From Thuidium tamariscinum (taxonomy: Eukaryota > Streptophyta > Bryopsida > Hypnales > Thuidiaceae): a stretch of 64,000 nucleotides of DNA. This document shows, piece by piece, positions 1-22,959 of this stretch. Position 1 is the first letter of the stretch; the number at the start of each line of letters is the position of its first letter. A program made the position numbers and the translations under genes. The stretch is from the NCBI GenBank assembly GCA_947034885.2, contig OX344756.2, positions 20,257,489-20,321,488 on the forward strand, written 5' to 3'. The notes beneath the pieces were generated by a model, which was given only the letters and a program-made list of their open reading frames with translations, had not been told where the DNA came from and did no database searches.

Positions 1-628
1 TGAAAAGAACAAAAATAAAATATATTCTAAGAACGAACTCCCATTAATCAATTAGCATAGGTAAAATGATGGCGGCTTCATGAAACGAAAACTAGCATTG
101 AAATAACCCTTCAGGTCGACTCAACCTAAATTGCATCTTCTTCTAGAATATAACAATCAAGTGCACTATTTTTATGCCGAATCAACCTAACTTGATTCCA
201 CCTCTAAGAAACAAGTGCACAGAAGTTGCAATTTAGGTCGACTCAACCTAAATCGTAATTCTTCACTAAATAAAAATTAATCCATTAATTTGTGGATTCA
301 TTCCAAAACAACATCTCCATCAAACACTCATACATCAAATGCAAGAATTCGTTGAAAATACCAAGCAGTCAATAAAAACCTGCAATAAAGATTGCATTCA
401 CTATAACAATAATTTTTATTAAAAGTATTTAGGAAAACCAAAGCAAACAAACTAACACCTTCTGCAATGGTTTGGTAGAAACCAATATGCAACGAAAGAC
501 AATTTCCAGCAGAGCCAAATCAACACCAAATCCAATCCAAACCAATTGCTGTAATAATAACATTTGACGACATATATGATGTAACTTAGACACTACCACA
601 GGAAGTACGTCTTCAGAACTATAACACC
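1..628. other. AT-rich 3' flank of the DUF7869 gene, no gene seen
   Basis: No supportable coding frame. It contains two copies of the 21-bp palindrome family (111-130 and 232-252), plus a half site near 180 that keeps only the right arm (ATCAACCTAA). The rest is AT-rich and would hold the 3' untranslated region of the minus-strand gene that ends at 629. Confidence 0.6.
111..252. repeat. 21-bp palindrome family, copies 1-2
   Basis: Two copies, at 111-130 and 232-252. Both have the arms AGGTCGA and TCAACCTAAA around a central C; the right arm has A where the consensus has G. They lie 3' of the DUF7869 stop codon. The family consensus is TTTAGGTCGA, one variable base, TCGACCTAAA. Confidence 0.85.
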
Positions 629-3169
629 TTAAGTGAACATTTCAAGGCTCCGGTTTATCACTTCAATTTGAGTAGCTGGAATCTTCAACAAGCATTGTCG
701 AGTATCTTTCTTGATTTGAGACTTCCATGCTGTCATCAAAGCATTAGTATGCTCCCAAATTGGAGGATCATTTATATCCACCTTCCAACGCAGACCTTGT
801 GCACTATCCCAACCAGTATAGTAGTCTTGCACATCCTGGTCTCTTGATGTCGGACGGAAGTACTGGATGAGCACACAATTTGGGTGCTCCGGGTTGCAAT
901 CCGGATTCGACAATGCCCTTGCAATCCAAACTGGCCGTGTATCACCATCTGTAGGACAAACTGCTACAAAATAACCTTCAAAGAGATCACGACCAACCCT
1001 AAAAGATGGTTGTGGACGACCACGCAAAGGCCCAACATAAGCATCGTCCTCTCCAAACTCCTCAAGTTTATCACCATCTTCTCCTAATTGATCGGCTTCA
1101 ATGGCTTCAACTCTAGTACTTGGCCAGAAATCGTCCTTCAAAACCGTGGATGGAAGTAGTGGTTCTTGCAAAGCATTCTTCACATCACGCCAGTAGTGTA
1201 CCACATGCTCATAACGCCTCCGACACTCTCCTGTGACATCTGCATTGCATAAGTTCTCCCAATACTTCACGAAGCCTCCAATGCCTTTTTCAATGTCCTC
1301 CAATCCTCTCATTGGTTTGGGGGAAACAGGCAATGGCATGCCACGAGGCCACAGACTACGTCCCTCAGAATCTTCCTTCCACAATTTGATACCTCTACCA
1401 TCCTCCCCTAACCATTCAAGATCAGTGCAAAGCAATTTGTACTTCATAACTAGAACTCCATTTGAATCCAAGTAGAACTTTACTTGTTGTGGCTTTGTAT
1501 GTCCAACAAGCATCTCATCACCATCAACAAATGAACCCGCTATAAACCCCTTGAAGTCTGGCACCTCTTCAATGAGGTGGGGAATAGTTGGAATGGATTC
1601 CACGTCCATGAACGACTTCATGAGTGCTGGAACTGTTGGGAAGTTCTCCTTCTTCAATAGCATACTCCATCTCCCAAACAATGCATCGATGTCGTCGTGT
1701 GTGTGCCCAACTATCATGAAGTTCACGTAGACCTCTCGAAAAATCTTGTTGGCCACCAAAAGAGACCAGAAACAAAAAACATATCGATTCTTGTTATCAC
1801 CAGTGGCATTGTCCATCTGCACATTAAGAATCGGAGGCAATGGTGTTCCAAAAACAAAGGTTTGTGGTGGCGGCGGTAGTGCCGCTTCACACAATTCCGC
1901 ACCCTTCAAAACCTTTTGAAATAAGTTGGTGGACCCTGACCCCACAAACAACATTCTTGAAGAAGACTTTGGTGGTTCTTCTAAGTCTCGTAACAACCTT
2001 GCCATGGAGCCGATAGTATAGTTCGAATCATGGGGGAAGATATCCAAGCCATAATGGGCATACCAGACATCACCATGACCGTGGGCAATCATACCCGTGA
2101 CGGAAATTGGCAACTTTACAAAACCGTTGGTGTCCTTACTCTTGTGTGAGAAGACAGGGCAAGCAGTCTTGGCATGATCCATCTTGTCATGCATGATTGT
2201 GAGACACTCATGTGGAGAATTGAAAGAACAGTAGCGATTGGCGTAGTAGTACTCTCTATGAGCACGAGCAATAGCTAGATGTTTGTCCAACCTCCGTGAC
2301 CACTTTAAAGCGCTGACAGATCCAGCCAAAGCGCTCTTCCTCAACTCCTGCAATTGATCACAAGTGGCACACCTAGCAAAATTGTCCCCTGGCTTTTTTA
2401 CTTCGAACTCAAAGAACTTCTTCGACCTTATTTTGCTCAAATTGGAGAGGGAGATATTTCTCAACCCAAAGGCAGCGTTGGTGTCATTGATTGTTTTCAT
2501 TTGACCTTTCCATTGAAAGGTAGATGGCAAAATCATAGAGACAACTTTCTCTCCTGACTTGGTACTCCGTGTTTTATGTGGCATGTGGTCTGCCTCCTTC
2601 TCGAGGAGGCATTTCAGTGTAGCAGCTGCCTGCTCAGTGTGTCCCCTTAGCTTCAGCAACCCGAAGTTCCCATGGTCCCTTGCTTCCCGTTTGTCGTTCG
2701 CATATCGTTGGTAGCAGTAGAATGTTGCCTCTGGAACTCCAGAAATGAGCATCCACGCTCTCATGCACACACTGATCCCCTCCACGACAACCATTTTCCT
2801 CCCATCCGAGTCACGATGAACGGACCTATGAACTTCTGTCTTCATATGGGCCCTGAACTTGAAAGTTGAACGTTGGTACATGCGTTCTCGAAATGCTCGT
2901 ATCTTCTCCCTCGGAAACGGCTGAATGCAATTTTTGGTGCAGCAGATTTTGCAGGACACAGCGTTGATGGACTCTTGTGTGAGAAGTTCCTTCGCTCTCA
3001 ACCCAACTTCACGTGGTGGATTTCGAACCACACTCGTGTACGGTCGAGCAGATGTCAGTGATGGCGGGTTTGAAATACTTGCTTGGAGGCGGTTAAAATT
3101 ATCCCGGGCCTCGTGGTCACGAAGGCTAGCACCTCGACAATGCACGTAATCGATTGGCCAAGCCATCAA
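629..3169 (-). CDS. DUF7869-type transposase-like protein (RNase H-like fold suspected)
   Basis: This is an uninterrupted 846-codon frame, the longest in the window. Cysteine clusters CKICC (73-77) and CATC (267-270) suggest metal binding. Three acidic motifs follow: MHDKMDHAKTACP (326-338), VQMDNATGDNKN (450-461) and GHTHDDIDALFG (488-499). Their order and spacing match DUF7869-domain proteins, which occur in many copies in non-seed plants and invertebrates and look like DDE/RNase H-fold transposase relatives; that fold assignment is inference. The last ~150 residues contain a WIARAL segment like the small chromatin-reader domains often found at the end of plant versions. The frame ends in TAA. 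The upstream 94 codons (3185-3466) are in the same frame, separated only by one TAG, so the true start is probably 3466. Palindromes lie on both sides. No terminal inverted repeats were found, so whether it is mobile or domesticated is open. Confidence 0.75.
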   Translation of the reverse strand: MMAWPIDYVHCRGASLRDHEARDNFNRLQASISNPPSLTSARPYTSVVRNPPREVGLRAKELLTQESINAVSCKICCTKNCIQPFPREKIRAFRERMYQRSTFKFRAHMKTEVHRSVHRDSDGRKMVVVEGISVCMRAWMLISGVPEATFYCYQRYANDKREARDHGNFGLLKLRGHTEQAAATLKCLLEKEADHMPHKTRSTKSGEKVVSMILPSTFQWKGQMKTINDTNAAFGLRNISLSNLSKIRSKKFFEFEVKKPGDNFARCATCDQLQELRKSALAGSVSALKWSRRLDKHLAIARAHREYYYANRYCSFNSPHECLTIMHDKMDHAKTACPVFSHKSKDTNGFVKLPISVTGMIAHGHGDVWYAHYGLDIFPHDSNYTIGSMARLLRDLEEPPKSSSRMLFVGSGSTNLFQKVLKGAELCEAALPPPPQTFVFGTPLPPILNVQMDNATGDNKNRYVFCFWSLLVANKIFREVYVNFMIVGHTHDDIDALFGRWSMLLKKENFPTVPALMKSFMDVESIPTIPHLIEEVPDFKGFIAGSFVDGDEMLVGHTKPQQVKFYLDSNGVLVMKYKLLCTDLEWLGEDGRGIKLWKEDSEGRSLWPRGMPLPVSPKPMRGLEDIEKGIGGFVKYWENLCNADVTGECRRRYEHVVHYWRDVKNALQEPLLPSTVLKDDFWPSTRVEAIEADQLGEDGDKLEEFGEDDAYVGPLRGRPQPSFRVGRDLFEGYFVAVCPTDGDTRPVWIARALSNPDCNPEHPNCVLIQYFRPTSRDQDVQDYYTGWDSAQGLRWKVDINDPPIWEHTNALMTAWKSQIKKDTRQCLLKIPATQIEVINRSLEMFT

Positions 3170-3184
3170 TGAGTAGACCCGCTC

Positions 3185-3466
3185 CTAGGGGATGTCCTCT
3201 TCAGAGTGAGTCTTCGAGATGTGAATTGCAACATGGGTGTCCCCGAGAGGGCCATTTGAGCCCAAGACGAGGTCTGAGGTTACACTATGACAAGTTCCTT
3301 CCCCGACGAGCGTCCCCTGAATGTTGTACAATGTAACACACATTGTATTCCAAAGTCGGCGAGGCAAACCTTCACACTCGGGAATGCCGATATTCATTCC
3401 CTCGAGGACTTGGAACTCGTCGTCTGAAGAGTCCAAGGAACCCCCATGCATGATCGAGGAAGACAT
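3185..3466 (-). CDS. N-terminal part of the DUF7869 gene, ended by an in-frame TAG
   Basis: The 93 codons start with MSSSIMHGG and end EEDIP at TAG (3185-3187). The next codons (ERVYSL) run without a frame change into the 846-codon frame below, so both pieces are probably one protein of about 945 residues. TAG is one C-to-T change from CAG (Gln). The frame is acidic at its start (DSSDDEF) and has no recognisable domain. Just upstream on the minus strand, TTATGCAG precedes ATATC-ATG, a plausible 3' splice site, so the start codon may follow a 5' UTR intron containing the palindrome cluster at 3553-4139. Alternatives are a genuine stop with re-initiation at 3169, or readthrough. Confidence 0.55.
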   Translation of the reverse strand: MSSSIMHGGSLDSSDDEFQVLEGMNIGIPECEGLPRRLWNTMCVTLYNIQGTLVGEGTCHSVTSDLVLGSNGPLGDTHVAIHISKTHSEEDIP

Positions 3467-3552
3467 GATATCTGCATAATAAAATTAGAGTAAGTAAGTA
3501 GATTTAAATGAAAAGAGATCAGAACACAATGAAAGCATACTTCCATAAGCCA

Positions 3553-4139
3553 TTTAGGTCGAATCGACCTATTCTACCATTCCTAGAATATAATTCTGTG
3601 TCATTCAATGCACATCAATCTTCTTGCGCCAATTCAATTTCATTTAATTGGAAATCGGATTTTCTTTAGAAATCAAGGATATTGCAGTGTGTTTCGAAAA
3701 TAGTTCCAGGCCATGAATTAGGTCGAATCGACCTAAATATACCTATTTCGTAATCGTTTCAGATGATCTTATGCTTTCATAAACAAATAGGTGTAACTGT
3801 ATATATAGTACCTTCCAGTTCATTTAAAGTATGCAAAACATTCCCACACACTTCAGATAGGCCTATCTTTTAGGTCGATTCGACCTAAACTAATCTGCCT
3901 ACTCTTCTTTCAGATATTATTGATAATCATATTCGAGTACCATTCGATTCTTTATCTCATTAAGAATATTTCTGGAACAGTTCAGAAGATACTCAGTTTA
4001 GGTCGAGTCGATCTAAACCCTAGTCGTCCTAGACAAACTAGTACTGTAAGGTCCATTTAGGTTGACTCGAGCTAAATGGGTCCCTCTGCTGGGAACTCGG
4101 ATAAGACATTCCACTACATTTAGGTCGAGTCGAGCTAAA
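3553..4139. repeat. 21-bp palindrome family, cluster of six (copies 3-8)
   Basis: Copies at 3553-3573, 3718-3738, 3869-3889, 3997-4017, 4056-4076 and 4119-4139. The copy at 3869 has perfect arms; the others carry one to three arm substitutions. Central bases differ (GAATC, GATTC, GAGTC, GACTC) while the arms stay fixed. The cluster lies immediately 5' of the minus-strand DUF7869 gene, probably within its leader or first intron. Confidence 0.9.
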
Positions 4140-6716
4140 TGGCTCCGGATTCTGCGGGAGTCGTCCTTCGTAATACCGCTCTTGTATGTTCCGGGTTTTA
4201 CGGCGAGAAAGTAGGAGTCGTCTCTCTGTCGCAGAGACTGTCGAAAGCACAATCGAAACACACAACGTCGCATCGCAATATGCACCACTGGAGTTTGAAA
4301 TGCTATCATAAACAATCAACAAGCAAATGTATCTGTCGACGAGGAATGCTGTGCGACTCCAGTGTTTGACAACATATTAATGTTCACAGTGAACTGCACA
4401 GAATACCCTGCACAGGCTACAGAAATATAGTATTTCATACCCAAAGTCACCAAAGCTTTCCTCCACGACCTTCGACACCACGGTCCTGTACAGCGTATTG
4501 CAAACAACCTTCAATGCACAGAACACCTAACGCTCGTAGGACACGCCGCGCGCAAAAGAAAGAGCAGCAAGAGACCTCAAGAATGTGTTACCGAAAATGA
4601 GAGAAGCTCGCCCTCTGGAAGGCGTTGGAACGTAGGTCGAATGATGACCAATTCCTGGCGGGAGGGAAAAAGGCGGCAAGTACAATGGGGACGTTTGAAT
4701 TAGGAAGTACCGCCTGCAATTTCTTCGTCGCTGATCGGAATCTGTTGTCTTCCATTCCTGTTTTTGGAAAAAAGTAGACGCGGAATTGTGGTATTTAATG
4801 ATTTCGGCTCGTTTCTAAAACTGTGGGACACTTCATGGCTACACTCAGGCATTAATAGAATTTCATTTCATTGGAGTCCCAAAAAAACATAATAGTATCT
4901 CCAAGTTATAGAATATTTTAGAACAAGTACTTCTAAAACTGCATTCCATTGTAAAGTACAGGGCACACATCCGATTTGTTGCACGTTGTGAAGGGCAAAA
5001 ATTCCGCTCTTTCTTTGGCCGTCATAGGAGGTCATCTTTGCTGTCTACAGCTTCAATATCACTTCTTTAAATTCTGTATCCAGATTTTAATCTCCGATTT
5101 ATTCCCTCCTCCTTGTCAGGCTTTTCCTTTTATGCGTTTCCATTATGGTACAAAATTCTCTCAAGAATTTCAATTCACGTTTCATACAATGATTGGAATA
5201 CAGCACAATTATTCTTTCTACTTAATATTGTCTTGATTCTCAATTCAGGAAGAAGTCCACCGTCCCAACTTTTAAAATAGACTGCATTTTAAGTTACGAG
5301 AAGAATCTTCTTGTCAAATTTTGAGCCTCTAGATGCTTTGTAGCTAATTAAAGGATATTTTTAAGCGTTTTGTTTAGGAATAAAATTTGTAGTTCTTGCG
5401 TAGTAATGGCCATTAATTAGGGGAAATATGACTCTTTTCCTATAGAACTATTGGATTTAGGATTCAAAATTTAAGGTTTCATGTTCAAGGTTTTTAAGGT
5501 CCACGGTTTCAAGCTCAGATTCGAAGGGTAAATTTGTAGGGTTACAATTCCTGAAAATTTTAGTTTGCACATAATCAATACATCTCTCGTGCAATTGTAA
5601 AGTCTAGAAGTAGTCATCTTTAAGACATACAATTTCATAAAGATAAAACTTTTAATGCGTACAACATAGACGTTGTTTCAAATTTAATTTTCCCACGAAA
5701 TTTTAAAGATCTCAATTCCACCTACCTTTGTTTAAGAGATATTGAACTCAAATGAAGAACAATTGGAGGCCTCATTAATTTCTTCTAATCCCACATTTAC
5801 TTCATCCCCAAAAAATGGAACATTGTATTTTATAAACAAAAATCCATTAAAAGACATTTTCGTTAATGCAAAAGCATAGGAAAAAAAACGTACAATTAAC
5901 AAATATTTGTATACCTCCTAAAAGATGCACAAAGGAATTATAATTTGTACAGCTTGCCCCTTGAAAATTATTCACGAACAATTGAAATAAAATTTGAAGT
6001 GCTTCTTCTTTGAAGAAACTAGATCGTTCAAGTACTTTGATTAGTATGCCTTAAATAATTGTAGAAGTTGCAAATGTTTAATGAAATTCAAATGCATATA
6101 AAAAACAAAATTGTAGGCTTGGAGGACTTTGAGCTCCTAAGGTTCATTGAATTGCAATAAACATCCTAAACATTTAGACAAAAATTTAATTAAAATTAAA
6201 ATTATTTGATTGGAACAATATTTCATGGAATTTCCATGAACTACGACTGGAATACACAAAATTGGTACAAGATGGTTTTTTATTAAATTTGATCTTCTTA
6301 TATTGTACAATTAAAATGAAGACCAAACTTTGATGACCACATTCTAGAATATCCTATCCATTTAATCAAGTTCTCAAAAAGAAAGAAATATGGTTGAATA
6401 TAAATTATAAAATTGCAATGTACTATTTTCGCATATGAAAAATTGGTACCATTATTTAATCCTTTGATATGTTTATCATATAATACACCTAGAATTTGAA
6501 TGAAGTTTTCTTAAATTTTTTTAAAATGAAACTCATTCTAAAGAAATGCAAATGACCTACAAAACAATAATCAAAACTACTATGTATAATTCATATAAAT
6601 TCAAAGAACATTGCAATGGGCAATTGGGCATAGGAAAATAGTAGAACTTATATATATAATGGTTTAGGATTGAAAATAGTGTCCACTAGTTCTTACACAT
6701 TAAACAGTAGAATATT
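4140..6716. other. Non-coding, AT-rich; possible promoter side of the DUF7869 gene
   Basis: No supportable gene. 4140-4760 is less AT-rich and would hold the promoter or first leader exon of the minus-strand gene; a palindrome half site (TAGGTCGAAT) lies near 4632. From 4860 to 6716 the sequence is low-complexity AT-rich DNA with faint similarity to the satellite further right. Confidence 0.5.
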
Positions 6717-6759
6717 TTGAAATTTAATTTGAATACAAAAGATTCGTATTCTATAACAT

Positions 6760-7700
6760 TTGACATCTACATTTCTTTTGGCTTTAATCAAGTTAATTTA
6801 AAAACATTTACATGTAATTTCAATTTAATAAAAGAAGTACGCCAAAGTAACTCAATTTCAACTGAAGGATTAAATAGGAATGAAACACTTGGGAAGTATA
6901 ATAGAATTCCGAATGGTTCATACAACATGAAGGTTCATTGGCATTCCAACGCACACATTTTTTTTAGTGGCTTCCATGCACGTGAATTTTAAAACATTAG
7001 CAAACTTTTGCGGTTTCCTTTAGAAATGCTGGGGTTGCTTTTTATGTTGCATTTAATAAGAAAAGAGCAATAAGTATGAAAGAAATTAAAATGGGCCAAA
7101 AAACATGAAATTTTAATGGCATTCCAACTTACAAATATTTCTTTTTGGCTCCCATGCATGTGAATCTTGAAACATTTGCATGCTCCTGCGATTTCCTTAA
7201 AATATGGCAGGGCTGATTTTTTGGTTGCATTCAATGAGAATGGAGCAATAAAATCCAAAAAAATTAAAATGCATCGTAGAACATCAAAGTTCAATGGCAT
7301 TCCAACTTACACATAATTTTTTTTTAATTCCATGCACGCGAATTTTGAAACATGTGAACACTTTTGCGATTTAATTTCTCAAAACAGTAGGGCTGCACCC
7401 TCTTTGTCGCATTTCATGAGAACGGAGCTGTAAGATCAAAAGAAATTAAAATGGGTCATTGAACATGAATGTTAAATGGCATTCCGACCAATGTAAACAT
7501 TGTTTTTTAATTCTATACAAATGATTTCAAAACATTCGCATGCTTTTGTAATATAATTATCAAACAATGGCAAAAAGGTGTATACTTTTGAATCAAATAG
7601 GGCTAAAACAATTAGATTTCATGACGACTAAATTAATCATAGAATATAAAAGTTTCGTAGCATTGTAACTTCGATTTTTTAGTATTTCACTTTCTTGTAT
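6760..7700. repeat. Diverged tandem repeat of about 178 bp, related to the main satellite
   Basis: The landmark GGCATTCC recurs at 6940, 7118, 7296 and 7478, with a weaker copy near 7659, giving spacings of 178, 178, 182 and about 181 bp. Each unit carries a degraded form of the CATGAATGTT core, an AATGGCA block and a poly-T block in the same order as the 9-12 kb satellite. This looks like an older part of the same satellite. Confidence 0.7.
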
Positions 7701-9030: not shown

Positions 9031-11880
9031 CGTCTACCTTAGTTTGTCCCCCTTCACGTGAAATTTCAATCCTATGTCCGTGTAGAAAAAAGCACAAAGG
9101 AAGTGGCAACGTACCTTATTTTTCAAATTAAACAAAAATAAACAATTTCAAGTTTGTAATGCAAATTTGTCATAAAACATGAATGTTTCATGACATTTTA
9201 ATTTCTCCATAGTTTTTTTATTCTCCATTCGCATTGATTATCAATTCTATAAGTCATTCTATATTGAATCCAAAAAATGGTAGGGCATCCTTTTTTTTGA
9301 AATTAAACACCAAATAGAGAATTTCAAGTTAGTAATAGGATTCTGTCATAAAACGTGAATGTTATATGATATTAGAACTTCTCCATATTTCTTTTCGTCC
9401 TCCCTTTCCGTTGGTTTTCAATCCTATAGATATATTTTGAATTAAGCCCAAAAAAGGGCAGGGCATCCTATTTTTTGAAATTCAACAAAATATAGACAAT
9501 TTCAAGTTTGTAATGGGAATTTGTCATAGAACATTAATGTTCTATGACATTACAACTTCCCCATATTTTTTTTGGTCCCCCTTTTACGTTGATTTTCTAT
9601 TCTATACGTCATTCCAAATTGAATCCGGAAAATGGCAGGGCATCCTTTTTTTTGAAATTACACTAACAAGGCACAATTTCAAGTTTGTTATGGGAATTTG
9701 TCATAGAACATTAATGTTCTATGACATTGCAACTTCCCCATATTTTTTTTGGTCCCCCTTTTACGTTGATTTTCTATTCTATACGTCATTCCAAATTGAA
9801 TCCGGAAAATGGCAGGGCATCCTTTTTTTGAAATTCAACAAAACATAGGCAATTTCAAGTTTGTTATGGGCATTTGTCATAGAACATTAATGTTCTATGA
9901 CATTGCAACTTCCCCATTCTTTTTTATTCTCCATTCGCATGGATTTTGAACTCAATAGGTCATTCTTAATCGACCATGAAAAATGGCAGGCAAAGTATTT
10001 TTTGAAATTACACTAACAAGGCACAATTTCAAATTTCTTATGGGAATTTGTCATAGAACATTAATGTTCTATGACATTGCCACTTCTCCATATTTTTTTT
10101 GGTCCCCCCTTTGCGTTGATTTCCTATTCTATAGGTCATTCCAAATTGAATCCGGAAAATGGCAGGGCATCCTTTTTATGAAATTCAACAAAATATAGAG
10201 AATTTCAAGTTTGTCATGGAAATTTGTCATAGAACATTAATGTTCTATGACATTGCAACTTCCCCATTCTTTTTTATTCTCCATTCGCATGGATTTTGAA
10301 CTCAATAGGTCATTCTTAATCGACCATGAAAAATGGCAGGCAAAGTATTTTTTGAAATTACACTAACAAGGCACAATTTCAAATTTCTTATGGGAATTTG
10401 TCATAGAACATTAATGTTCTATGACATTGCCACTTCTCCATATTTTTTTTGGTCCCCCCTTTGCGTTGATTTCCTATTCTATAGGTCATTCCAAATTGAA
10501 TCTGGAAAATGGCAGGGCATTCTTTTTATGAAATTCAACAAAATATAAAAAATTTCAAGTTTGTCATGGAAATTTGTCATAGAACATTAATATTCTATGA
10601 CATTGCCACTTCTCCATATTTTTTCTGGTCCCCCCTTTGCGTTGATTTCCTATTCTATAGGTCATTCCAAATTGAATCCGGAAAATGGCAGGGCATTCTT
10701 TTTATGAAATTCAACAAAATATAGAAAATTTCAAGTTTGTTATGGGAATTTGTCATAGAACATTAATGTTCTATGACATTGCAACTTCCCCATATTTTTT
10801 TTGGTCCCCCCTTTACGTTGATTTTCTATTCTATACGTCATTCCAATTTGAATCCGGAAAATGGCTGGGCATTCTTTTTTTGAAATTCAACAAAATATAG
10901 ACAATTTCAAGTTTGTTATGGGAATTTGTCATAGAACATTAATGTTCTATGACATTGCAACTTCCCCATATTTTTTTTGGTCCCCCTTTTACGTTGATTT
11001 TCTATTCTATACGTCATTCTAAATTGAATCCGGAAAATGGCAGGGCATCTTTTTTTTTTAAATTCAACAAAATATAGACAATTTCAAGTTTGTTATGGGA
11101 ATTTGTCATAGAACATTAATGTTCTATGACATTGCAACTTCCCCATATTTGTTTTGGTCCCCCCTTTGCGTTGATTTCCTATTCTATAGGTCATTCCAAA
11201 TTGAATCCAGAAAATGGCAGGGCATTCTTTTTATGAAATTCAACAAAATATAGACAATTTCAAGTGTGTAATAGGAATTTGCCATAGAACATTAATGTTC
11301 TATGACATTGCAACTTCCCCATTTTTTTTTATTCTCCATTCGCCTGGATTTTGAATTCTATAGGTCATTCTTAGTCGAGTTCAAAAAATGTTAGGCAAAT
11401 TATTTTTTGAAATTTCAGTAAAAACACACAATTTCAAGTTTGTCATGGAAATTTGTCATAGTAAGAACATTAATTTTCTATGACATTGCAACTTCTCCAT
11501 TTTTTTTTTGGTCCCCCCTTTACTTTGATTTTCTATTCTAGAGGTCATTCCAATTGAACCCAAGAAATGGCAAGGTAAACTATTTATTGAAATTAGACAA
11601 AAAATACTCAATCTCAAGTTTATAATGAAAATTTGTCATTGAACATGAATGTTTTATTACATTCAACTTCTTCATTTTACCTTTGGTCCCCCTTTTATAT
11701 CCATTCTGAATTCTATTGGCAATGTGAAAATTAACCGACACAATGAGAATCGAATGTGTTTTATGAAATCTAGCATAAATTGTAGATAATTTTAAGTTTG
11801 GAATGGGAAATTGTGTAGAACATTTTTTTAGAAGGTATAACAACAATTTCAAAGTTCTTTACTAAAGTATTTTATGTCCA
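9030..11880. repeat. Satellite array, about 15 monomers of 174-178 bp, each with a 28-bp palindrome
   Basis: Palindrome starts are at 9168, 9344, 9522, 9699, 9875, 10049, 10225, 10399, 10575, 10751, 10927, 11104, 11280, 11454 and 11634, with a remnant near 11809. The core is TGTCATAGAACATT followed directly by its reverse complement. It is perfect in nine central monomers and imperfect at both array ends. The rest of the monomer has a poly-T tract, GGTCCCCC, a TTCTATTCTAT block and GGAAAATGGCAGGGCAT. A second monomer type (TTATTCTCCATTCGCATGG) makes a 350-bp dimer. Open frames across these units repeat with the satellite and are not genes. Confidence 0.95.
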
Positions 11881-13645: not shown

Positions 13646-14163
13646 GTGAGGAATTTGCTTGCATTGTAGTTGGGGTTCCATAATGATGCAGAATGGTAAT
13701 GTTTTGTGTGTGATTTAGGGTATGTATTGATTGTATTAGGTCGTCATTCACAACGTGGGTGTTTCTAAGTGTTTAGTTTGTGAGATTATGGTATGTTGAA
13801 CTTGTAATTAGGGTTCTATTTTGTGATTTCCCTTCTCTCTGAGTCTGTGAGAGAGCAGTCTGTGTTCAGCTGGAAATTACGTTGACCAGCATTCAGAATT
13901 GCAAGTGTTTTAGATGAGAGTTATCTGTGTGTTGAGCGACAGATTGATGTCAATTTTACAATGTTGAGAGTTTTAGTTAATGGTTTCTTACTTGTCTGTA
14001 GAGCTTTCAGTGCATTAGGGTGTGTGAGGAATTACTGATTTACTCGTTCGGTACTTGGAGTTGAGAGATCTTGTTTAACTTGAGAGGAGTTGGAGAGGTG
14101 AATTGCTTATTTCGTGAGTGTATCAGCTGTAGACTGTTGAGCGAATTTGAATAACAGTCAGGT

Positions 14164-14756
14164 TAGATCGATGTCAGATTAGGTCGATGACAGTTTAGGT
14201 CGATAATGAGAAATGTTTATTCTCTTAGATGAAAGAGGACATCAATTTAGGTCGAACCGACCTAAAATGACTCCAACATCCACACAGATATGTATGGGGT
14301 ACAGAAACTTCATGTGATATGTGAAGAGAAAAATGTTGCAAACACCAATTTATAATATCGCATTTTAAGATATAGCAGGCAATCATTTTAGGTCGTGTCG
14401 ACCTAAACTGACAACCCATATTTCAATGAAGAAATCCAGGCTATAGTAAGTACCCGAAGTAAAAGTAACGACGAAGAGTATAAATAAAAAAATCAAAACA
14501 CTTAGGCCAGAAAAGCCGTTAAGCACATTACACATTACCTCAAAAAGAATAACTTCTATGTAAAATAAGGAATTGAGATTTAGGTCGAGTCGACCTAAAC
14601 CGTAAGAAATCAGAGAAAACAAGCCAAGGTCTCTAGCGTGTAAGATATGTATAGTTGAAAATGGTCCTACATGCTTCAACTAAAATATAATTCCAGTGGA
14701 GACAAGCATTAACATGCCGAGTAGCCAACATGTTCGTTTAGGTCGAGTCGACCTAA
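14164..14756 (+). repeat. 21-bp palindrome family, four copies and half sites in the 5' intron
   Basis: Full copies at 14246-14266, 14387-14407, 14579-14599 and 14737-14756; the third has perfect arms. Half or degraded sites (TAGATCGATG, TTAGGTCGATG, TTTAGGTCGATA) lie at 14164-14205. All lie in the inferred 5' intron 13646-14792, and the last ends 36 bases before its 3' splice site. Confidence 0.9.
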
Positions 14757-14793
14757 CTAGAGAACTGATAAAAATTGACATAAACCTTGCAGG

Positions 14794-16233
14794 ATGGAGG
14801 AGCAGGTCCCAAAGCTCGAGCAGTTCTTTAAAAGACTAAACATCGCAGCTGCTGCTGACGATGATGGTGACGACTTCAACAACGAAGGGGAGTATTGGGA
14901 GCTGAAAGATCCCGAAGTAGTTGAATGCTGGTCCCTCATGCTCATTCCCATGACGCATAAGTATTGTTTTTGTCGAAAGTACAAGGACCAGCTGCCGTTT
15001 TACCCAATCTCCTACGACGAGAAGATTAAGGAGGTCTCCCCCGACATGGGCACTATGATCAAGATCCATTGTGTCACAACGCAAATCGGGAAGAAGGACG
15101 AGGAGCAATATCACTTCACACTCGTGATCGACTCCTTGAAGATTCCTTTCTACATTACGCATTTCCTCCACACTCTCGAGAATTCACCTTACAAAGATGA
15201 GATTCCAGAATTAGAGAAGAAGGTGGACAACGGATATTGGAAAAACAAGAAAGGATCTCAAGTGAGCGGGAAGAACCTTTGTGACAGACTACGACAACTC
15301 TTTGTTGATTTTGCGGTTTTGAAGGGAAAGATGGATCTGAAGAAGAGTCAGACCGCACCACGATCAGTGTCTCATGATCCTCCAAGCCAGATTGAAGGTC
15401 AGAGCTTCCAAGGCACGCTAGGGACCCAGCAAAGTCGTGGGACTAGACGGAGTATTCAGACTGGCACACCACCGGCGGGGCCTAGGAAGAGTAACCTGGC
15501 CTCTTCTTCTGCTAAGAAGAAGACGGACAAGGACCCAAAAACCCCTGTTCCCGCTGACCTGAGCTTCGCATCAGCTGTCACAGATGTGCCCTCTGCACAT
15601 GATCCAAAGCGTGTGGCGGACTACAAGGAGTCCACGGAGGCATACAAGAATTACTGGGCAGTAAGCAGTGATGCATACATCTTCGACATAGACGAGAAGA
15701 AGAGGCTGCCAATCGACAAGCTTGTCGCCGCGCCAGCCGACGTGAACATCCGCAGCCACGAGCAGCGGCTTGTCGAAGACATGTTCCATTTTTTGATGCA
15801 CATGCCAGATAAAACTGGAAAACAAACGTTGTGCGTCATGCTGAAGCACCAGATTGAGAAGCCGAAGAGAGAGGACTGGGAGCAATTGAAAAACGGCGAG
15901 TTTTACATAGTCAACGGCCAACACAGTGTGTCTGCTAGCAAACTGATGGTCGAGAGAAATGTGGATGAGGCCATCCTCAAGCACTTCCGTGAGTGGGACT
16001 GCTACATAGTGTGGTCTGACAAAACTGAGATTCTGAAGACCATCTCCGCATACTATAATCGTGTAAATCACTTCGTGGCTTTGAAGCCCTCCTGGTCAAC
16101 AAATATTCTTGGAGCAAGAACATATTGGATCAACATGGACAGACCACGGAACCCGAAGGATGCCGCCCCAGTGGGAACAACTTCCGTCGCCAGGCGGAAC
16201 GCTGATAACAAGAAGAACTCCTTGAAGTTCAAG
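14794..16233 (+). CDS. Exon 1 of ParB-like / methyltransferase-like protein: ParB/sulfiredoxin-like domain
   Basis: The exon holds 480 codons, starting at an ATG one base after an acceptor and ending SLKFK in phase 0 at AAG before GTAAGT. Residues 1-180 are acidic then mixed and unrecognised; 185-260 is a polar Ser/Pro/Lys-rich linker. Residues about 295-430 read like a ParB N-terminal (sulfiredoxin-fold) domain: IDKLVAAPADVNIR, a helix starting EQRLVEDM, then FYIVNGQHSVSASKLM (370-385) in place of the bacterial DGHHR/GERR signature loop, then WDCYIVWSDKTEILK and YYNRVNH. The best analogy is prokaryotic and phage proteins in which ParB precedes a DNA methylase, as seems to happen here with exon 2. 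In bacteria such domains bind nucleotide or act in DNA recognition or modification; the function in this protein is unknown. No stop breaks this exon, suggesting recent or continuing constraint. Confidence 0.65.
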
Positions 16234-16242
16234 GTAAGTTCA

Positions 16243-16340
16243 TTTAGGTCGAGTCGACCTAAATCTCTGATTGACACTCTAACTCCGTTGAGTATACGTT
16301 TATGAATCTGTACATGTTATTTAGGTCGAGTCGACCGAAT
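16243..16340 (+). repeat. 21-bp palindromes, copies 13-14, at the start of intron 1
   Basis: A perfect-arm copy at 16243-16263 begins 9 bases after the donor GT at 16234. A second copy at 16320-16340 ends GACCGAA instead of GACCTAA and lies 16 bases left of the transposon in the same intron. Confidence 0.9.
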
Positions 16341-16355
16341 TCTGTATTCTTACTA

Positions 16356-17087
16356 GGGTGAATGCAAGAAAGACCGACCGTTTTTTGCGTCACACTTGTA
16401 GTTTCCAAGTTGTAATTGGCTATATCTTTTGCAGATTGAAGTCAATGGACTTGAATTTTTTTGTGAATATCAGCATTTAGACAATAATTAGGGAAATTAT
16501 TTTTCAGAAATTTTCAAAAATCATTTTATATTTAAATTTCAATTAAGCTAATTTGTCACACTTTGCAGTTTAGGGGTTTTTAGTACTAGGGACTACTCAA
16601 AATTAATAATCTAGAGCTGAAATTTGTGTGGTCTATTAACACACTAAAGAGGCATGTGTCCACCAAAAAAAAATTTTAAAAAAAATTATTTTATATCTTC
16701 TACATTCATGCAAATAGGGTTCCCTTGCGAGCGCAATTGTGAACATTGAAAATGGTTTTAAGATCATTATTTTGATGAAATCTCTTCATCATGAAGTATT
16801 CTCAAATTGCCAATTTTTAGTTTTTTTGAAAATTACTTTTCCTATTTTTTACAAATTAAAATGTCAAAGTATCTATTTTCTTCAAAAACCTTGTTTTGCC
16901 TATTTTGTGAATAACTTCTGATCCAAATTTTTTTTGGATCTGAAATTTTGGTGACATAATGTTTATAGTATTATTCTAATTATCCATATTTTTTTTAATT
17001 TTTAAATATTTTTTTCCAAAAGTTCACTAGTACTAGCTAGTACAAGTGAATGCTACAAAAACCGGTCGGTCTTTCTTGCATTCACCC
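16356..17087. mobile_element. Non-autonomous TIR transposon, 732 bp, 4-bp TSD (copy A)
   Basis: It has perfect 25-bp terminal inverted repeats beginning GGGTGAATGCAAGAAAGACC at 16356-16380 and 17063-17087, flanked by the 4-bp duplication ACTA (16352-16355 and 17088-17091). It sits wholly inside intron 1 (16234-17116), making most of its 883-bp length. The interior is AT-rich and non-coding. A second copy in reverse orientation lies at 44178-44910. A 4-bp TSD is known for Sola and Ginger type transposons, but with no transposase present the superfamily is not settled. Confidence 0.9.
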
Positions 17088-17116
17088 ACTAATCAGTTAT
17101 TACTGTGTTCAAACAG

Positions 17117-18469
17117 GAATTTGTGAAGGCCATGAACGTGAGATTCGCCATGCTAGACGTGGTGAAATCACAGAAGTCTTCACGAGGGAAAGACGCCGAA
17201 GAGAAGCTTAAGATCACGAACGAGTTGAAAATTATCACGGCGCCAGACGACGTGTACAACCTCTGGAGCGAGGTGATTTCTAGTGCTGCTCATGGGGAGC
17301 TCATTGACCCAGACACCTTGGTGAAGTTCAAGGACAAAACGGGGTGGAAGTCAGAGAATGGGAACCTGACACACAAATTTTTTAAGTGGTTGGGAAATCT
17401 CTCTTACGACGACCTGAAGAAGCTCGCGCAGCACATTCTTCACATGAACCCCAAGAGGCAGAACCTTCAATACCCCAAGGTGACCGTGAAGATGATCTCT
17501 TCAGTGCTGGAGAGTTGCTACACGGCAAAAGATTGGGTGGAGAGGCGCAAAAGAAAGTACCTGGTGAAGCGCGAGCTGCACCTCTTGGATCCTTCCTTGG
17601 GATTGTTGAATGCGTTCAACACTCTGAATGTTGAGAAATGGAGGCAATTCAAGATCAGCCGCTCCATAACGAGTGCCACAATGAACGTTCTCCTCGAAAA
17701 ACCTGGAGAGGATTATTGGAAGGACGTGAAACAAACTAAGTCCAAGAACAAGACCGCGGAGGAGCTTTCTCCCTACGTTGCCCAGTTCTTCAAGGCCTTC
17801 TTGTCGCGACGCAATAATTTTGTGAAGCCACAAACTATAGCACATTACAGGACTTATCAGATTGAGACGGACAGGCACCACGATTGGCCCGCTGGCGCGT
17901 GGCTGCAGGAGATGGTTCAGGGCATTGATTTTGGAGTGATTGACTTCAGATACACTCCTGTGGTTTTGAACAAGGGAAAGTGCACACCATTGAACCCATA
18001 TTTTGACGCGGTGATGTGCTCTTTCCAAGCAATGAAGAAGCCAACACTTGAGGAGATCCCGAGGTGGATGTTCATCTGCGCAGATGTCGTTGAGCAGACC
18101 CAAGTGCTGACGTTCATTTCCCAGAACCCTGTCTTGAAGGAGTACCAAATAGACAATGCGGATTACTTGCCTGCTAGGAATGAGAGAATGGGAGACTATT
18201 CTGCAAACAACAGTAAGGCGGTAGAGAAAGTGCACCTCATATTCCTTCAGGACAAGTCCAGAGTGGAATGCCACCTTCCAAGCAAGACGAACAGGGCTCC
18301 TGATACAGATGTATTCAACAAGCCCCGTATGTACAATGAGATTGCGTTCAGGATACACAATACAGAACTCCGCATGGAGTTCTATTTGAATATCCTTCGC
18401 CGATTTGCTCTCAGATCATTGAACGTGTTGTCGGTGTTTGGTGGAGCAAAGCTGACATGCGCTGCCATG
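17117..18469 (+). CDS. Exon 2: beta-class DNA methyltransferase-like domain with degenerate motifs
   Basis: The exon holds 451 codons (protein residues 481-931), in phase 0 at both ends: acceptor AAACAG at 17116, donor ATG before GTAAGC at 18470. The first 250 residues are basic and helical and not recognised. IDFGVIDFRYTP (about 751-762) aligns with the motif IV region of beta-class N6-adenine/N4-cytosine methyltransferases, with DFRY replacing the catalytic DPPY. RWMFICADV, then EKVHLIFLQDK, fit the following strands. The end, FYLNILRRFALRSLNVLSVF plus GGAKLTCAAM, matches the late motif I block (VLDPFxGSGTT) of this class, with GGAKLT instead of GSGTT and Ser replacing the motif Asp. Motif IV before motif I is the beta-class order. 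The changed residues argue for a pseudo-enzyme or binding module. Alternatives are a chance resemblance, or a distant family with other chemistry. Confidence 0.55.
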
Positions 18470-18478
18470 GTAAGCTTT

Positions 18479-18587
18479 TTTAGCTCGAACCGACCTAAAT
18501 CCATCACATTCCTCTTTTTCTACACACTTTGCACATTTTTATGTTAGAGAAACTTGTAATCTCCATTTTAGGTCGAGTCGACCTGAA
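18479..18587 (+). repeat. 21-bp palindromes, copies 15-16, at both ends of intron 2
   Basis: Intron 2 is only 176 bp (18470-18645). One palindrome (18479-18499, arms TTTAGCTCGA and CGACCTAAA) begins 9 bases after the donor. The other (18567-18587) ends 58 bases before the acceptor CCCAG. Confidence 0.9.
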
Positions 18588-18645
18588 TTGGTGGTGGTCC
18601 TGATATCCCTATCATTGTCTAACAAAAATGTAATCCTGTTCCCAG

Positions 18646-19725
18646 ATGCAAGGATACAGAGTGTTCGCCGTCGGGACATCTGATGAGTCTGAGCTGTGGG
18701 CTGAAATCATTGAGGTCGGCAAATCACTAGACCAAGACGACTTTCTTCCAAAGGGATATTTCGTGGATGAGGAGCTTCACCCACGGAAGCCGCCAACCGA
18801 ATCTACACCGTCCTCGTTTCGACGAAGAGCGTCTCTGTCCAGGGCGAAGATGCCTGAAGTTGAAGTGGAGGAATTGTCTGACAACAATGCCAACACTGAC
18901 GACGACATGGAACTGACGGACACACAAGCTTTCAATGAGGAGCAATTCACACCCGTGAACCTCACTCAGAGTGTGCAAGGGTCTTCCGCGTCATCGGGGC
19001 AGCCCATGGATGTGAAGCCAGCGAGCACACCTATCCGGGGGAGGACACAGAGAAAAAGAAAGAGAGACGAGGAGGACGATGACGATGACGATGACGATGA
19101 CATGCGGGTGTAGTTGGAAAAGATTAGGGAGTCCCGGAAGAAGGAGCGCGCCCAAAATCTTGCGCTACATGTAGAACAAGGTGAGCGGCTTGATGAGATA
19201 AAGGCACTCATCTTCTCCCAGAATGCCGACAATAAGGCGACCTTGGTAGCCATCGTGAACCACTTGAAGGGAGTCGCTCCCATCAGCGCTTCCCTTCCAA
19301 GATCGGGTGACTCACCATTGATGATCCCAAATACAGGATACGGATCCTTTGGTTCGTTTCTGAATTATGGGACAGGTCTTCCACAACCAGGGAGCTCGTC
19401 TGCTGCTCCCCAGGCTCTGATGCCAGCACCTTCTGTACCAACGGCATCGGCTTCCAATCCTCCCATTGCGCAGCCTGTTCAGCCCGCATCCGTTGGTCCC
19501 TCTGTAGAAAGAGGGAGTCCTGATGTCTAGGGTGAGCAGCCTCCTCTTCTTCTCGGAGATTCGCCAATGACTACTCCGTACCACTTCCCGATTCTGACAT
19601 CGATCCAACAGAAATTATTCTAATGGATGTTGAGGACGACGAAGTCGTTGCACGTGCCGTGGAGAGCGTCCTTGCTGTGGTTGAGGACACATTGGCTACA
19701 CTAGATACCTCGGATGCCTCTGCAG
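18646..19725 (+). pseudogene. Exon 3: end of the methyltransferase fold and acidic nuclear-type tail, broken by stops and a frame change
   Basis: The exon begins MQGYRVFAVGTSDESELW, completing the motif I/II strand of the methyltransferase-like fold. A polar region follows with a basic stretch GRTQRKRKR beside nine Asp encoded by a GAC/GAT microsatellite (about 19069-19101), a likely nuclear signal plus acidic tract. TAG at 19111-19113 interrupts the frame, which continues in register for 138 codons (LEKIRESRKKERAQ coiled-coil-like, then a Pro/Ala/Ser linker) to a second TAG at 19528-19530. Just past it the coding-like frame shifts (to about 19539-19725: SRRFANDYSVPLPDSD, then DVEDDEVVARAVESV) and runs to a possible donor at 19726. 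Both TAGs could derive from CAG. The exon is either decaying, or 19113 is the real end and the downstream exons belong to other isoforms. Confidence 0.5.
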
Positions 19726-19762
19726 GTGCCTCCAGTTAAAATTTTGATGTGCTGCTTCGCGG

Positions 19763-19783
19763 TTTAGGTTGGGTCGACCTAAT
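19763..19783 (+). repeat. 21-bp palindrome, copy 17, in intron 3
   Basis: TTTAGGTTGG with GTCGACCTAAT: three arm changes from consensus. It begins 37 bases after the inferred donor at 19726, in the 255-bp intron 19726-19980. Confidence 0.8.
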
Positions 19784-19980
19784 GTGTATCATAGTTTTTA
19801 CATAGTCTTACAGGATTATAGATGTTTTATTTTCTTGGTTATACAGATCTCCAATGTGGAAAAACCATAGGGATCTTCATTTTGATTTTTGAAAATCAAT
19901 TTTGTAAAAAATCACTCATCTTATAAGGAATTTTTATACGGCATTCTCACATTATATTTTTGACTTCTTTCCAATGGCAG

Positions 19981-20225
19981 GCGCTGTGAATGTCATGAGT
20001 GATCCTTGTGGCATTGACTATGAAATTGCAAATGCTCCTTCTCCAAAAATCATTACTTCTGTTCCCGTGGAATCCGAGCCATCCGCGAGTGACGATAACC
20101 TGGCTCTTCCTGATGAGATTGCTCGTGCTGGCCTTGCAATGCTTGATGCTACATTAATGCCATTGGAGGTTGTGAACCCAGTCGCCTTGGGAGATGGACA
20201 TGTAATCACGGGACCTCCTCTTGAG
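19981..20225 (+). CDS. Exon 4: small acidic linker exon, unrecognised
   Basis: The acceptor CAATGGCAG ends at 19980. Joined in phase 1 to exon 3 (GCA-G + GC-GCT), it reads on as AVNVMSDPCGIDYEIANAP for about 82 codons, ending GPPLE in phase 0 before GTTAGT at 20226. The composition is acidic and hydrophobic (ESEPSASDDNLALPDEIARA) with no known domain. Its open frame, matching phases and good splice borders support a real exon; the donor upstream (GCAG before GTGCCT) is weak. Confidence 0.5.
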
Positions 20226-20385
20226 GTTAGTAATATGAATGAATGACTGCTTGTTCACTTCGCGGATTCCTTTTTTTCTTTTTTTCTTCGCTGCCTTTTT
20301 TTGTTTCCCGTATTCGTGTAGTAGGGAAATCAATAACGGGAGGTTGTTTAGTGACTAGCATCGTCTTCTCTTCGTTTGATAGCAG

Positions 20386-21183
20386 GCAACAGACCCTACA
20401 TGTTCTTGTGGTGAATCGTCGGAGGGTGTTTCGGTCCCATTGAGTTCCAAGTTGGTGGATAGGTGGCTTCATGTCGTCCTGGACCTGAATGGGATCCTAT
20501 GTGTTTGCGAGGATGCAAAGTCCAAGGGTTTACCAAAGTGTCTTCGAGACTCTAGGCAGCCACATTCGGCAACCACCCCCGCGCTTGTGGGACCTAAACT
20601 AGTTTATGTCCGTCCAAACTGCGCGGAGTTTTTGCGACAATTATCTCTATTTGCCTACGTCTCAGTGTGGAGCTCTATGAGAAAGCCCACTGCTGAAGAG
20701 ATTTGCTTGTATCTCTTCAACGGCCTAAGATATCCAGATTTCGTTTTCGGGCAGAACTCTTGCACCACGCTGAAGTGCAAGGAAAGCTCGGGGTACGTCA
20801 CGGTATTCAAGGAGCCAGGCACAAACAAGGAGTTGTTTCTAAAAGACCTCAGTCAGCTTTTCACTAGCACCCGAGGGAAATTCAAGCCGACTAATACAGT
20901 CATGGTTGATGATAGTCCAGTCAAACACATTCTCAACAAGCCAGAGAATGTTGTTCTCCCGGACACCTGGTCCTACAAGGGCAATGGTCCGAAGGACACG
21001 TTTCTCCTTGACAACCTTCTACCTTGGTTGCAGTGTCTCCATCTCGCTCGCGATGATGGTTTGAAGTCCTTTCGGGATAATAGTTCCGGAAAAATGGGAC
21101 GCAGAATGTTGTGCGATGAGCGGAACCGGAAGGAATACAATAGGCTCATGGAAATCGTCAGGCAATCGAGTAGCTTGAGATAG
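20386..21183 (+). CDS. FCP1/NIF-type HAD phosphatase-like exon
   Basis: The acceptor GATAGCAG ends at 20385. 265 codons follow in phase with exon 4, ending in TAG. The order of motifs fits an FCP1 homology (CTD-phosphatase-like, HAD superfamily) domain: HVVLDLNGILC (exon residues 29-39) as the nucleophile strand, VYVRPNCAEFLRQLSLFAYV then SVWSSMRK for the WTS region, and NTVMVDDSPVKH for the late acidic motif. The canonical DxDx(T/V) is DLNGI here, so the second Asp (general acid) is Asn, as I recall for some plant FCP1-like proteins; activity is doubtful. With the ParB/methyltransferase-like exons it would make an unusual fusion. It may instead be a separate gene whose 5' exons are shared or overlap. 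AATAAA occurs at 21321-21326. Confidence 0.6.
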   Translation, partial: ATDPTCSCGESSEGVSVPLSSKLVDRWLHVVLDLNGILCVCEDAKSKGLPKCLRDSRQPHSATTPALVGPKLVYVRPNCAEFLRQLSLFAYVSVWSSMRKPTAEEICLYLFNGLRYPDFVFGQNSCTTLKCKESSGYVTVFKEPGTNKELFLKDLSQLFTSTRGKFKPTNTVMVDDSPVKHILNKPENVVLPDTWSYKGNGPKDTFLLDNLLPWLQCLHLARDDGLKSFRDNSSGKMGRRMLCDERNRKEYNRLMEIVRQSSSLR

Positions 21184-21243
21184 GGTCCTCATTTTATCGC
21201 GTCCTCTAGATGCTTCGCTAGTAGTTGTTGGAGGTGTGGTCAT

Positions 21244-21264
21244 TTTAGCTCGAGGAGACCTAAA
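21244..21264 (+). repeat. 21-bp palindrome, copy 18, after the FCP1-like exon
   Basis: TTTAGCTCGA, then GGAGACCTAAA: a degraded copy 60 bases past the TAG at 21183, in the 3' untranslated region or the following intron. Confidence 0.75.
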
Positions 21265-21497
21265 CTGTACATAGGCTTTTGGTTTTGCTCCAGTTGAGTA
21301 TGTACGGACTTACTTTTAAATAAATATTCGTGATTTCGTTTTCACTTCAGTATGTTGTTACCTCTCTTCAGCTGGGCTTGACCTTTCGCTGATTGCATTC
21401 TCTGTTTGTTTCTTCTATCTGTTTTTTCTTATGGATTGGAGTAGTTTCTAAAATAAAATCGTTCTTGATGATTGATTTGTAATCTTTTTATTTTCAG

Positions 21498-22935: not shown

Positions 22936-22959
22936 CCTTTACCTGCACAAAACAACCCG

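What the first reader, a model, noticed from the sequence alone, without database searches (positions are those of the whole stretch)
111..21264. Family of 18 interspersed 21-bp palindromes limited to two gene loci
Copies with arms TTTAGGTCGA and TCGACCTAAA around one variable base start at 111, 232, 3553, 3718, 3869, 3997, 4056, 4119, 14246, 14387, 14579, 14737, 16243, 16320, 18479, 18567, 19763 and 21244. None lies in an inferred exon, none occurs in the last 42 kb, and none in the satellite between the two loci. Arms are conserved while the surrounding DNA is not, and copies lack longer shared flanks, so they are not remnants of a larger repeat. This is not a known plant repeat type that I recognise.
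Basis: seen in the sequence. Interest (0 to 1): 0.9.

Follow-up and report, generated by a model that had tools for sequence, protein, structure and literature searches.

The report
Palindromic sites around transposon-like genes
In this 64-kb stretch, nineteen near-identical 21-letter mirror-image DNA words sit only in the non-coding parts of three neighbouring genes, one of them transposase-like, and look like docking sites for one paired DNA-binding protein that serves just this gene cluster, probably a mobile element.

Summary
All 18 palindromes are there with at most 3 mismatches, against 0.01 expected by chance; a 19th decayed copy lies at 171. By matrix score the 19 sites (19.4 or more) stand clear of everything else in 64 kb (next 6.6), and all lie in 110-21264. 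None overlaps a coding exon, although about 68% of the two blocks is coding. The neighbours are a DUF7869 protein (gene A; E=2e-42) with DDE-like spacing of acidic residues, a 1086-aa protein of no recognised family (B), and an NIF/SCP-type phosphatase (C).

Substitutions do not preserve base pairing (167 of 190 pairs; control 167.6 +/- 2.2), no copy has a flanking duplication of 3 bp or more, and half-sites recur in a tandem triplet. That favours a site for a dimeric DNA-binding protein. Best reading: operator or synapsis sites of a multigene DNA transposon. No element ends were found, and the deciding genome-wide test could not be run: the server answered none of 16 requests. The core also occurs in Rhizobiales repeats, with different flanks.

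The parts
110..130 (.). palindrome copy, 2 mismatches; 3' of gene A
   Evidence: matrix score 19.4 against 6.6 for the best non-site
232..252 (.). palindrome copy, 1 mismatch; 3' of gene A
629..3184 (-). gene A main open frame, 851 aa, DUF7869 (PF25273) with D333-124-D458-38-D497
   Evidence: ORF; Pfam E=2e-42; acidic residues; DDE reading is inference
3188..3484 (-). gene A N-terminal piece, same frame, separated by one TAG at 3185-3187; apparent 3' splice site just before the ATG at 3464-3466
3553..3573 (.). palindrome copy, 2 mismatches; 5' region/5' intron of gene A
3717..3737 (.). palindrome copy, 1 mismatch; 5' region of gene A
3869..3889 (.). perfect palindrome; 5' region of gene A
3997..4017 (.). 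palindrome copy, 1 mismatch; 5' region of gene A
4056..4076 (.). palindrome copy, 2 mismatches; 5' region of gene A
4119..4139 (.). palindrome copy, 1 mismatch; 5' region of gene A
14157..14204 (+). three half-sites in direct tandem, period 16 (unit GTCAGATTAGGTCGAT), about 40 bp before the next palindrome
   Evidence: two of the three score above 11 in the half-site scan
14246..14266 (.). palindrome copy, 1 mismatch; 5' of gene B
14387..14407 (.). palindrome copy, 1 mismatch; 5' of gene B
14579..14599 (.). perfect palindrome; 5' of gene B
14737..14757 (.). palindrome copy, 1 mismatch; 5' of gene B, just before the apparent 3' splice site TTGCAG
14794..16233 (+). gene B exon 1 (480 codons)
   Evidence: no relative in Pfam, NCBIfam, PHROGs or PDB
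16243..16263 (.). perfect palindrome, starts after the first 9 nt of intron 1 of gene B
16320..16340 (.). palindrome copy, 2 mismatches; intron 1 of gene B
17117..18469 (+). gene B exon 2 (451 codons)
18479..18499 (.). palindrome copy, 2 mismatches, starts after the first 9 nt of intron 2 of gene B
18567..18587 (.). palindrome copy, 1 mismatch; intron 2 of gene B
18646..19113 (+). gene B exon 3, ends in TAG; the frame stays open to 19530
19763..19783 (.). palindrome copy, 3 mismatches; between genes B and C
19974..20225 (+). gene C exon 1 (84 codons)
20386..21183 (+). gene C exon 2, NIF/SCP-type phosphatase (PF03031, E=7e-17); motif DLNG in place of the usual DxDG (usual form recalled)
21244..21264 (.). 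palindrome copy, 3 mismatches; about 60 bp after the stop of gene C

Best explanation
The palindromes are binding sites for one dimeric DNA-binding protein: two contiguous 10-bp half-sites TTTAGGTCGA facing each other across one free base pair. They are dispersed through the non-coding parts of a multigene DNA-transposon-like unit made of gene A (DUF7869, DDE-like), gene B and gene C. The protein is most likely encoded by the unit itself, with gene A or gene B the candidates. Binding at gene starts, introns and gene ends would couple expression of the three genes and/or hold distant parts of the element together for transposition, as TNPA-like proteins are thought to do on the subterminal repeats of plant CACTA elements. 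Shown: the site family, its dyad symmetry, its confinement in this window, its avoidance of exons, the half-site tandem, the DUF7869 match. Inferred: protein binding, that the three genes form one mobile unit, that DUF7869 is a transposase, which protein binds.
For: 18 sites with 3 mismatches or fewer, chance 0.01. The set is discrete: 19 sites score 19.4 or more, best other place 6.6. 0 of 19 in exons, P about 2e-10 if placed uniformly and independently in the two spans, which were drawn around the sites. Dyad matching is 13 to 18 of 19 at each arm position and mostly near chance outside. Mutations hit pairs as randomly as in controls, so the sequence of each half-site is what counts, not pairing. 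Half-sites also stand in a direct 16-bp tandem beside a palindrome, which suggests that the half-site is the recognised unit. Gene A carries DUF7869 and three Asp at DDE-like spacing 124/38. Genes A and B each carry a single in-frame TAG, and CpG observed/expected of A-C coding and palindrome-bearing DNA is 0.63-1.09 against 0.42 for 33-64 kb; both fit a mobile unit without proving it. [quoted passage not shown]).
Against: No terminal inverted repeat bounding the unit was found; only exact matches were sought between the flanks, two 11-mers and one AT-only 9-mer matched to the right flank and were not judged terminal, and the left end may lie outside the window. A 40-nt, 73% inverted pair 506-545 / 23496-23535 lies inside the first copies and was not followed. 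Known subterminal repeats lie at element ends, whereas these lie also in internal introns. Satellite arrays (6924-7372 and 9114-11696) separate gene A from gene B, so one unit is not shown. No DNA-binding domain was recognised in the pieces of A, B and C that were scanned. The CpG difference is also seen in the retroelement-like stretch 24-31 kb (0.70) and in part in 4.8-13 kb (0.59), so it does not single out these loci. The two TAGs could be real ends or an unseen intron.
Confidence: 0.45

Rival explanations
1. Host regulation: the sites are operators of a host transcription factor (or silencing factor) that co-regulates these adjacent genes; the genes are ordinary or domesticated and not a mobile unit.
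For: 10 of 19 copies lie 5' of the A and B coding starts, and A and B are divergently placed with apparent 5' untranslated introns.
Against: Sites also lie 3' of genes A and C and in internal introns. A DDE-like DUF7869 gene with an in-frame stop is more like a transposon than a regulated host gene. A host factor would be expected to have sites elsewhere; none is in the remaining 43 kb of the window.
Confidence: 0.27
2. Each palindrome is itself a tiny mobile or insertion-derived element (end-to-end terminal repeats, an excision footprint, or an introner-like intron maker).
For: Arms alike, flanks unrelated. Both coding introns of gene B have a palindrome exactly 9 nt after the exon (P of the same offset 0.011 in a simple placement model made after the fact).
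Against: 0 of 19 copies have a direct flanking duplication of 3 bp or more; 2 of 19 have one of 2 bp against 1.4 at random places, so a 2-bp duplication in all copies is excluded too. Introns 1 and 2 are not significantly alike outside the palindromes (masked score 63 against 52.7 +/- 6.1, largest of 300 shuffles 74.5). Confinement to these loci. Introners as described in PMC9860276 (start of abstract; passages) insert into many genes across a genome.
Confidence: 0.13
3. The copies act as RNA hairpins (splicing, termination or stability) or DNA cruciforms.
For: Perfect copies fold to about -9.7 kcal/mol as RNA; the 10 copies from 14246 to 21244 lie in or beside + strand gene models.
Against: Pairing is kept no better than under random substitution (167 of 190 pairs; control 167.6 +/- 2.2, 68% of controls at or above; mean energy -6.7 against -6.4 +/- 0.6). 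Four of 19 copies fold at 0.0 to -3.0 kcal/mol.
Confidence: 0.07
4. The palindrome derives from the Rhizobiales interspersed repeat that contains the same core, by transfer from a plant-associated bacterium.
For: The exact pattern is found in 46 stretches of the prokaryotic collection (257 Gb), all from Rhizobiales (Hyphomicrobiales) by title (order checked for Bosea, Aestuariivirga and Sinorhizobium). From 1 other such palindrome in the 368 kb fetched, about 0.7 hits per arm sequence would be expected, so a coincidence is not trivial.
Against: The bacterial copies have their own conserved flanks (GAT before and ATC after the arms, each base at 0.80-0.96); in the window the third base before the arm is G in 0 of 19 copies and the first base after it is A in 1 of 19. 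The window copies lie in and around spliced eukaryotic-type genes.
Confidence: 0.03

Closest known systems
Subterminal repeats of plant CACTA (En/Spm) elements, e.g. soybean Tgmt* (PMC2613891; section 7 read, other passages)
   [quoted passage not shown] here the copies are spread over 21 kb including internal introns, no CACTA ends were found, and the protein carries DUF7869 and no recognised transposase domain
Baculovirus homologous regions (hrs) bound by IE-1 (PMC6669502, passages)
   Same: Dispersed imperfect palindromes (30 bp) bound by an element-encoded protein; a single palindrome is the minimal requirement for plasmid replication in AcMNPV
   Different: Viral, longer, unrelated sequence; no viral genes were recognised here
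Bacterial ParB-parS type partition sites (recalled)
   Same: Several identical dyad sites placed around the genes of one unit
   Different: Bacterial; gene B has only a GQH motif that resembles ParB/Srx-like proteins by memory, with no family match
Rhizobiales REP-like interspersed palindrome
   Same: Identical core, TTTAGGTCGANTCGACCTAAA
   Different: Longer element with conserved outer flanks, in bacterial DNA, in 39 of 46 stretches not inside a mechanically called open frame of 120 aa or more
Introner elements (PMC9860276, passages)
   Same: Repeats located in introns, near splice sites
   Different: Here copies also lie outside introns, have no flanking duplications, and the introns share nothing significant but the palindrome

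Membership tests
CACTA (En/Spm) DNA transposon | CACTA-type terminal inverted repeats with 3-bp target duplication | tested here: inconclusive
   No exact inverted match of 9 bp or more between 1-110 and 4140-5200; one AT-only 9-mer between 1-110 and 21265-23000; two 11-mers between 1-320 and 21265-24000, not CACTA-like; imperfect repeats between the flanks not sought; the left end may lie outside the window
CACTA (En/Spm) DNA transposon | tnp2-type transposase domain | tested here: not met
   Gene A matches only DUF7869 in Pfam up to E=10
CACTA (En/Spm) DNA transposon | repeated binding motif in subterminal regions | tested here: inconclusive
   Repeated motif present, but ends are unknown and copies are also internal
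DDE-type DNA transposon in general | catalytic D-D-D/E triad in an RNase H-like fold | tested here: inconclusive
   D333/D458/D497 spacing fits; structure prediction without relatives failed (mean pLDDT 34.7)
Introner / MITE | target site duplication around each copy | tested here: not met
   0 of 19 copies with a flanking duplication of 3 bp or more, 2 of 19 with 2 bp (random 1.4)
RNA hairpin element | base pairing maintained through substitutions | tested here: not met
   167 of 190 pairs kept against 167.6 +/- 2.2 in controls
Rhizobiales REP-like palindrome | conserved flanks GAGCCGGATGAT / ATCTGAATCCGC around the core | tested here: not met
   Flank bases of the 19 window copies differ
Known structured RNA (Rfam) | match at the gathering score | tested here: not met
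   0 matches in the window

The most novel reading that the evidence does not exclude
A multigene eukaryotic DNA element whose own dimeric protein has an element-wide network of identical operator sites, in introns, gene starts and gene ends, so that one protein regulates all genes of the element and pairs its distant parts: a parS/hr-like architecture in a plant-type transposon with a DUF7869 enzyme.
Probability: 0.22. Interest if true: 0.75.

Novelty: new variant of a known kind. Interest (0 to 1): 0.5.

Why it matters
If the sites follow the A-B-C genes through the genome, they define a new large transposon type with a built-in operator network, give a function-first handle on the uncharacterised DUF7869 family, and give a ready DNA target for finding which protein binds. 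A full-text search for DUF7869 returned 0 papers in the library held.

Tried and rejected
Rejected: RNA hairpin or cruciform; individual tiny insertions with target duplication; homologous, introner-like introns; identity with the Rhizobiales repeat; Rfam families; tRNA or tmRNA. The 79-bp tandem at 23683-23913 carries three half-sites (GTAGGTCGA or TTAGGTCGA), but it lies in a retroelement-like stretch and counts as one event; I left it out of the family.

Led nowhere: exact palindrome in viral contigs, 0; relatives of gene A, of its DUF7869 part, of gene B exons 1 and 2 and of gene C in viral contigs: 1, 3, 4, 3 and 3 stretches matched a peptide pattern, none confirmed; gene A in plasmids and gene B exon 1 in phages, no match; PDB by sequence: nothing for gene B exon 1 up to E=10, one match for gene A at E=1.5 which I take as noise, nothing for gene C exon 2 up to 0.001 (gene B exons 2 and 3 were not searched there); AlphaFold without relatives, mean pLDDT 34.7 and 32.0, not used for fold searches; exact terminal repeats. 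Ten paper searches: in the listings that I saw no title reports this palindrome family. Listings were partial for four: 20 of 219, 20 of 69 (the palindrome's letters), 20 of 99, 20 of 38. Of PMC2613891 I read section 7 and passages, of PMC6669502 and PMC9860276 passages only. Mistakes of mine: the stop count of gene C (9) comes from a wrong start phase, one search shows the open frame; the exon bounds of genes A and C were off by 1 to 4 bases, and repeats the overlap check with the final bounds (0 overlaps).
Full report
What is there. Two start positions are off by one (110, 3717), and a 19th copy with 4 mismatches lies at 171. A symmetric matrix built from the 19 sites gives them scores of 19.4 to 37.0; the best other place in 64 kb scores 6.6, less than the best score in 15 of 20 random (Markov) sequences. 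The sites used to build the matrix score high by construction; the gap below them is the informative part. The family is thus discrete, without a tail of half-decayed relatives. All copies lie in 110-4139 or 14246-21264. The heptamer AGGTCGA occurs 29 times in 1-24000, both strands counted, and 0 times in the remaining 40 kb.

Anatomy. Gene A runs on the minus strand (ORF 629-3184, N-terminal piece to the ATG at 3464-3466, one TAG at 3185-3187) and matches DUF7869 (PF25273, E=2e-42). D333, D458 and D497, in MHDKMDH, QMDNATGDNKN and HTHDDID, stand 124 and 38 residues apart, as in DDE/D enzymes; that reading is inference. Gene B (exons 14794-16233, 17117-18469, 18646-19113; 1086 aa; frame open to 19530 beyond a TAG) has no family match in Pfam (best E=0.034 for exon 2 and 0.098 for the whole, HEPN-like, below cut-off) or NCBIfam, none for exons 1 and 2 in PHROGs, and none for exon 1 in PDB. 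Gene C (19974-20225, 20386-21183) is an NIF/SCP-type phosphatase (PF03031, E=7e-17) with DLNG where DxDG is usual (recalled). Intron 1 of gene B carries a nested insert of 732 bp with 32-nt inverted ends and ACTA on both sides.

Where the copies are. Three lie 3' of gene A; six lie 5' of it, upstream of an apparent 5' untranslated splice site; four, plus the half-site triplet, lie 5' of gene B; two each lie in introns 1 and 2 of gene B; one lies between genes B and C; one lies after gene C. None of 19 overlaps a coding exon, although about 68% of the two spans is coding (uniform, independent placement in spans drawn around the sites: P about 2e-10). In both coding introns of gene B the first copy comes exactly 9 nt after the exon (chance of equal offsets 0.011 in a simple model, noticed after the fact). 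The two introns are not otherwise significantly alike.

What kind of site. Dyad matching is 13 to 18 of 19 at each of the ten arm positions and mostly near chance outside, with 9 of 19 (P 0.04 each) at distances 13 and 18. Substitutions are spread so that 167 of 190 pairs remain, the same as when equal numbers of random substitutions are dealt out (167.6 +/- 2.2). So selection for pairing is not seen, which argues against RNA hairpins and cruciforms. No copy has a flanking duplication of 3 bp or more, and 2 of 19 have one of 2 bp, as at random, which argues against one insertion per copy. Half-sites in direct tandem with a 16-bp period beside copy 14246 suggest that the 10-bp half-site is the recognised unit and the palindrome is its dimer form.

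Best reading. A dimeric DNA-binding protein serves this gene cluster, and the cluster is most likely a multigene DNA-transposon-like unit. The nearest working analogue is the repeat array of CACTA elements: in the 20.5-kb soybean element Tgmt* direct and inverted motifs can form 14 palindromes, confined to 159 and 732 bp at its ends; a legend calls such motifs domains for TNPA-like binding, while the text says that recognition remains to be determined (PMC2613891, section 7 read; other passages). Here the copies are dispersed, also in internal introns, and no ends were found, so membership in CACTA is not claimed; the tnp2 domain test was not met. Baculovirus hrs (PMC6669502, passages) show that dispersed palindromes can serve one element-encoded protein.

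Against it. Satellite arrays lie between genes A and B; no DNA-binding domain was recognised; the higher CpG of these loci (0.63-1.09 against 0.42 for 33-64 kb) is shared by the retroelement-like 24-31 kb (0.70) and partly by 4.8-13 kb (0.59). A host operator family remains a serious rival.

A surprise. The exact pattern occurs in 46 stretches of prokaryotic genomes, all from Rhizobiales (now Hyphomicrobiales) by title (for the order of Bosea, Aestuariivirga and Sinorhizobium); several stretches come from the same genome. There it is the core of a longer interspersed palindrome with its own flanks (consensus CTAGAGCCGGATGAT-core-ATCTGAATCCGCTCTAG, from the 45 of 46 copies with enough flank). 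The window copies do not share those flanks, so I take this as coincidence or convergence. A rough density control, resting on a single other palindrome in 368 kb, puts the expected number of hits per arm near 0.7, so the coincidence is worth remembering.

Limits. Protein homologues could not be fetched, so DUF7869 could not be folded with an alignment (single-sequence models: pLDDT 34.7 and 32.0).

Noticed in passing
window 9114-11696: A 176/350-bp satellite array; nine of its units carry a perfect 28-bp palindrome TGTCATAGAACATTAATGTTCTATGACA. A second array of 178-bp period lies at 6924-7372.
   Followed up: partly
window 16356-17087: Nested insert in intron 1 of gene B: 732 bp, 32-nt terminal inverted repeats (97%), ACTA on both sides; its exact 11-base end occurs nowhere else in the window.
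   Followed up: partly
window 23683-23913: Three ~79-bp tandem units, each with a half-site (G/T)TAGGTCGA of the palindrome family, inside a retroelement-like stretch.
   Followed up: partly
window 22960-30806: Run of minus-strand open frames; one of them (26583-27575) has a weak aspartyl-protease match (E=0.0039, below cut-off). Probably a retroelement; the others were not scanned.
   Followed up: no
window 33263-33456 and 34348-34706: Two large inverted repeats: 86-nt arms 92% complementary with 22 nt between, and 165-nt arms 84% complementary with 29 nt between; MITE-like or small-RNA hairpin candidates.
   Followed up: no
L001-L046: Rhizobiales interspersed palindromic repeat with core TTTAGGTCGANTCGACCTAAA; in 11 of 46 stretches an open frame of 120 aa or more ends 12 positions from the core.
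   Followed up: partly
window 20386-21183: The NIF-type phosphatase has DLNG in place of DxDG (usual form recalled), so it may lack activity.
   Followed up: no
window 506-545 and 23496-23535: 40-nt inverted pair, 73% complementary, 22.95 kb apart; possibly chance.
   Followed up: no
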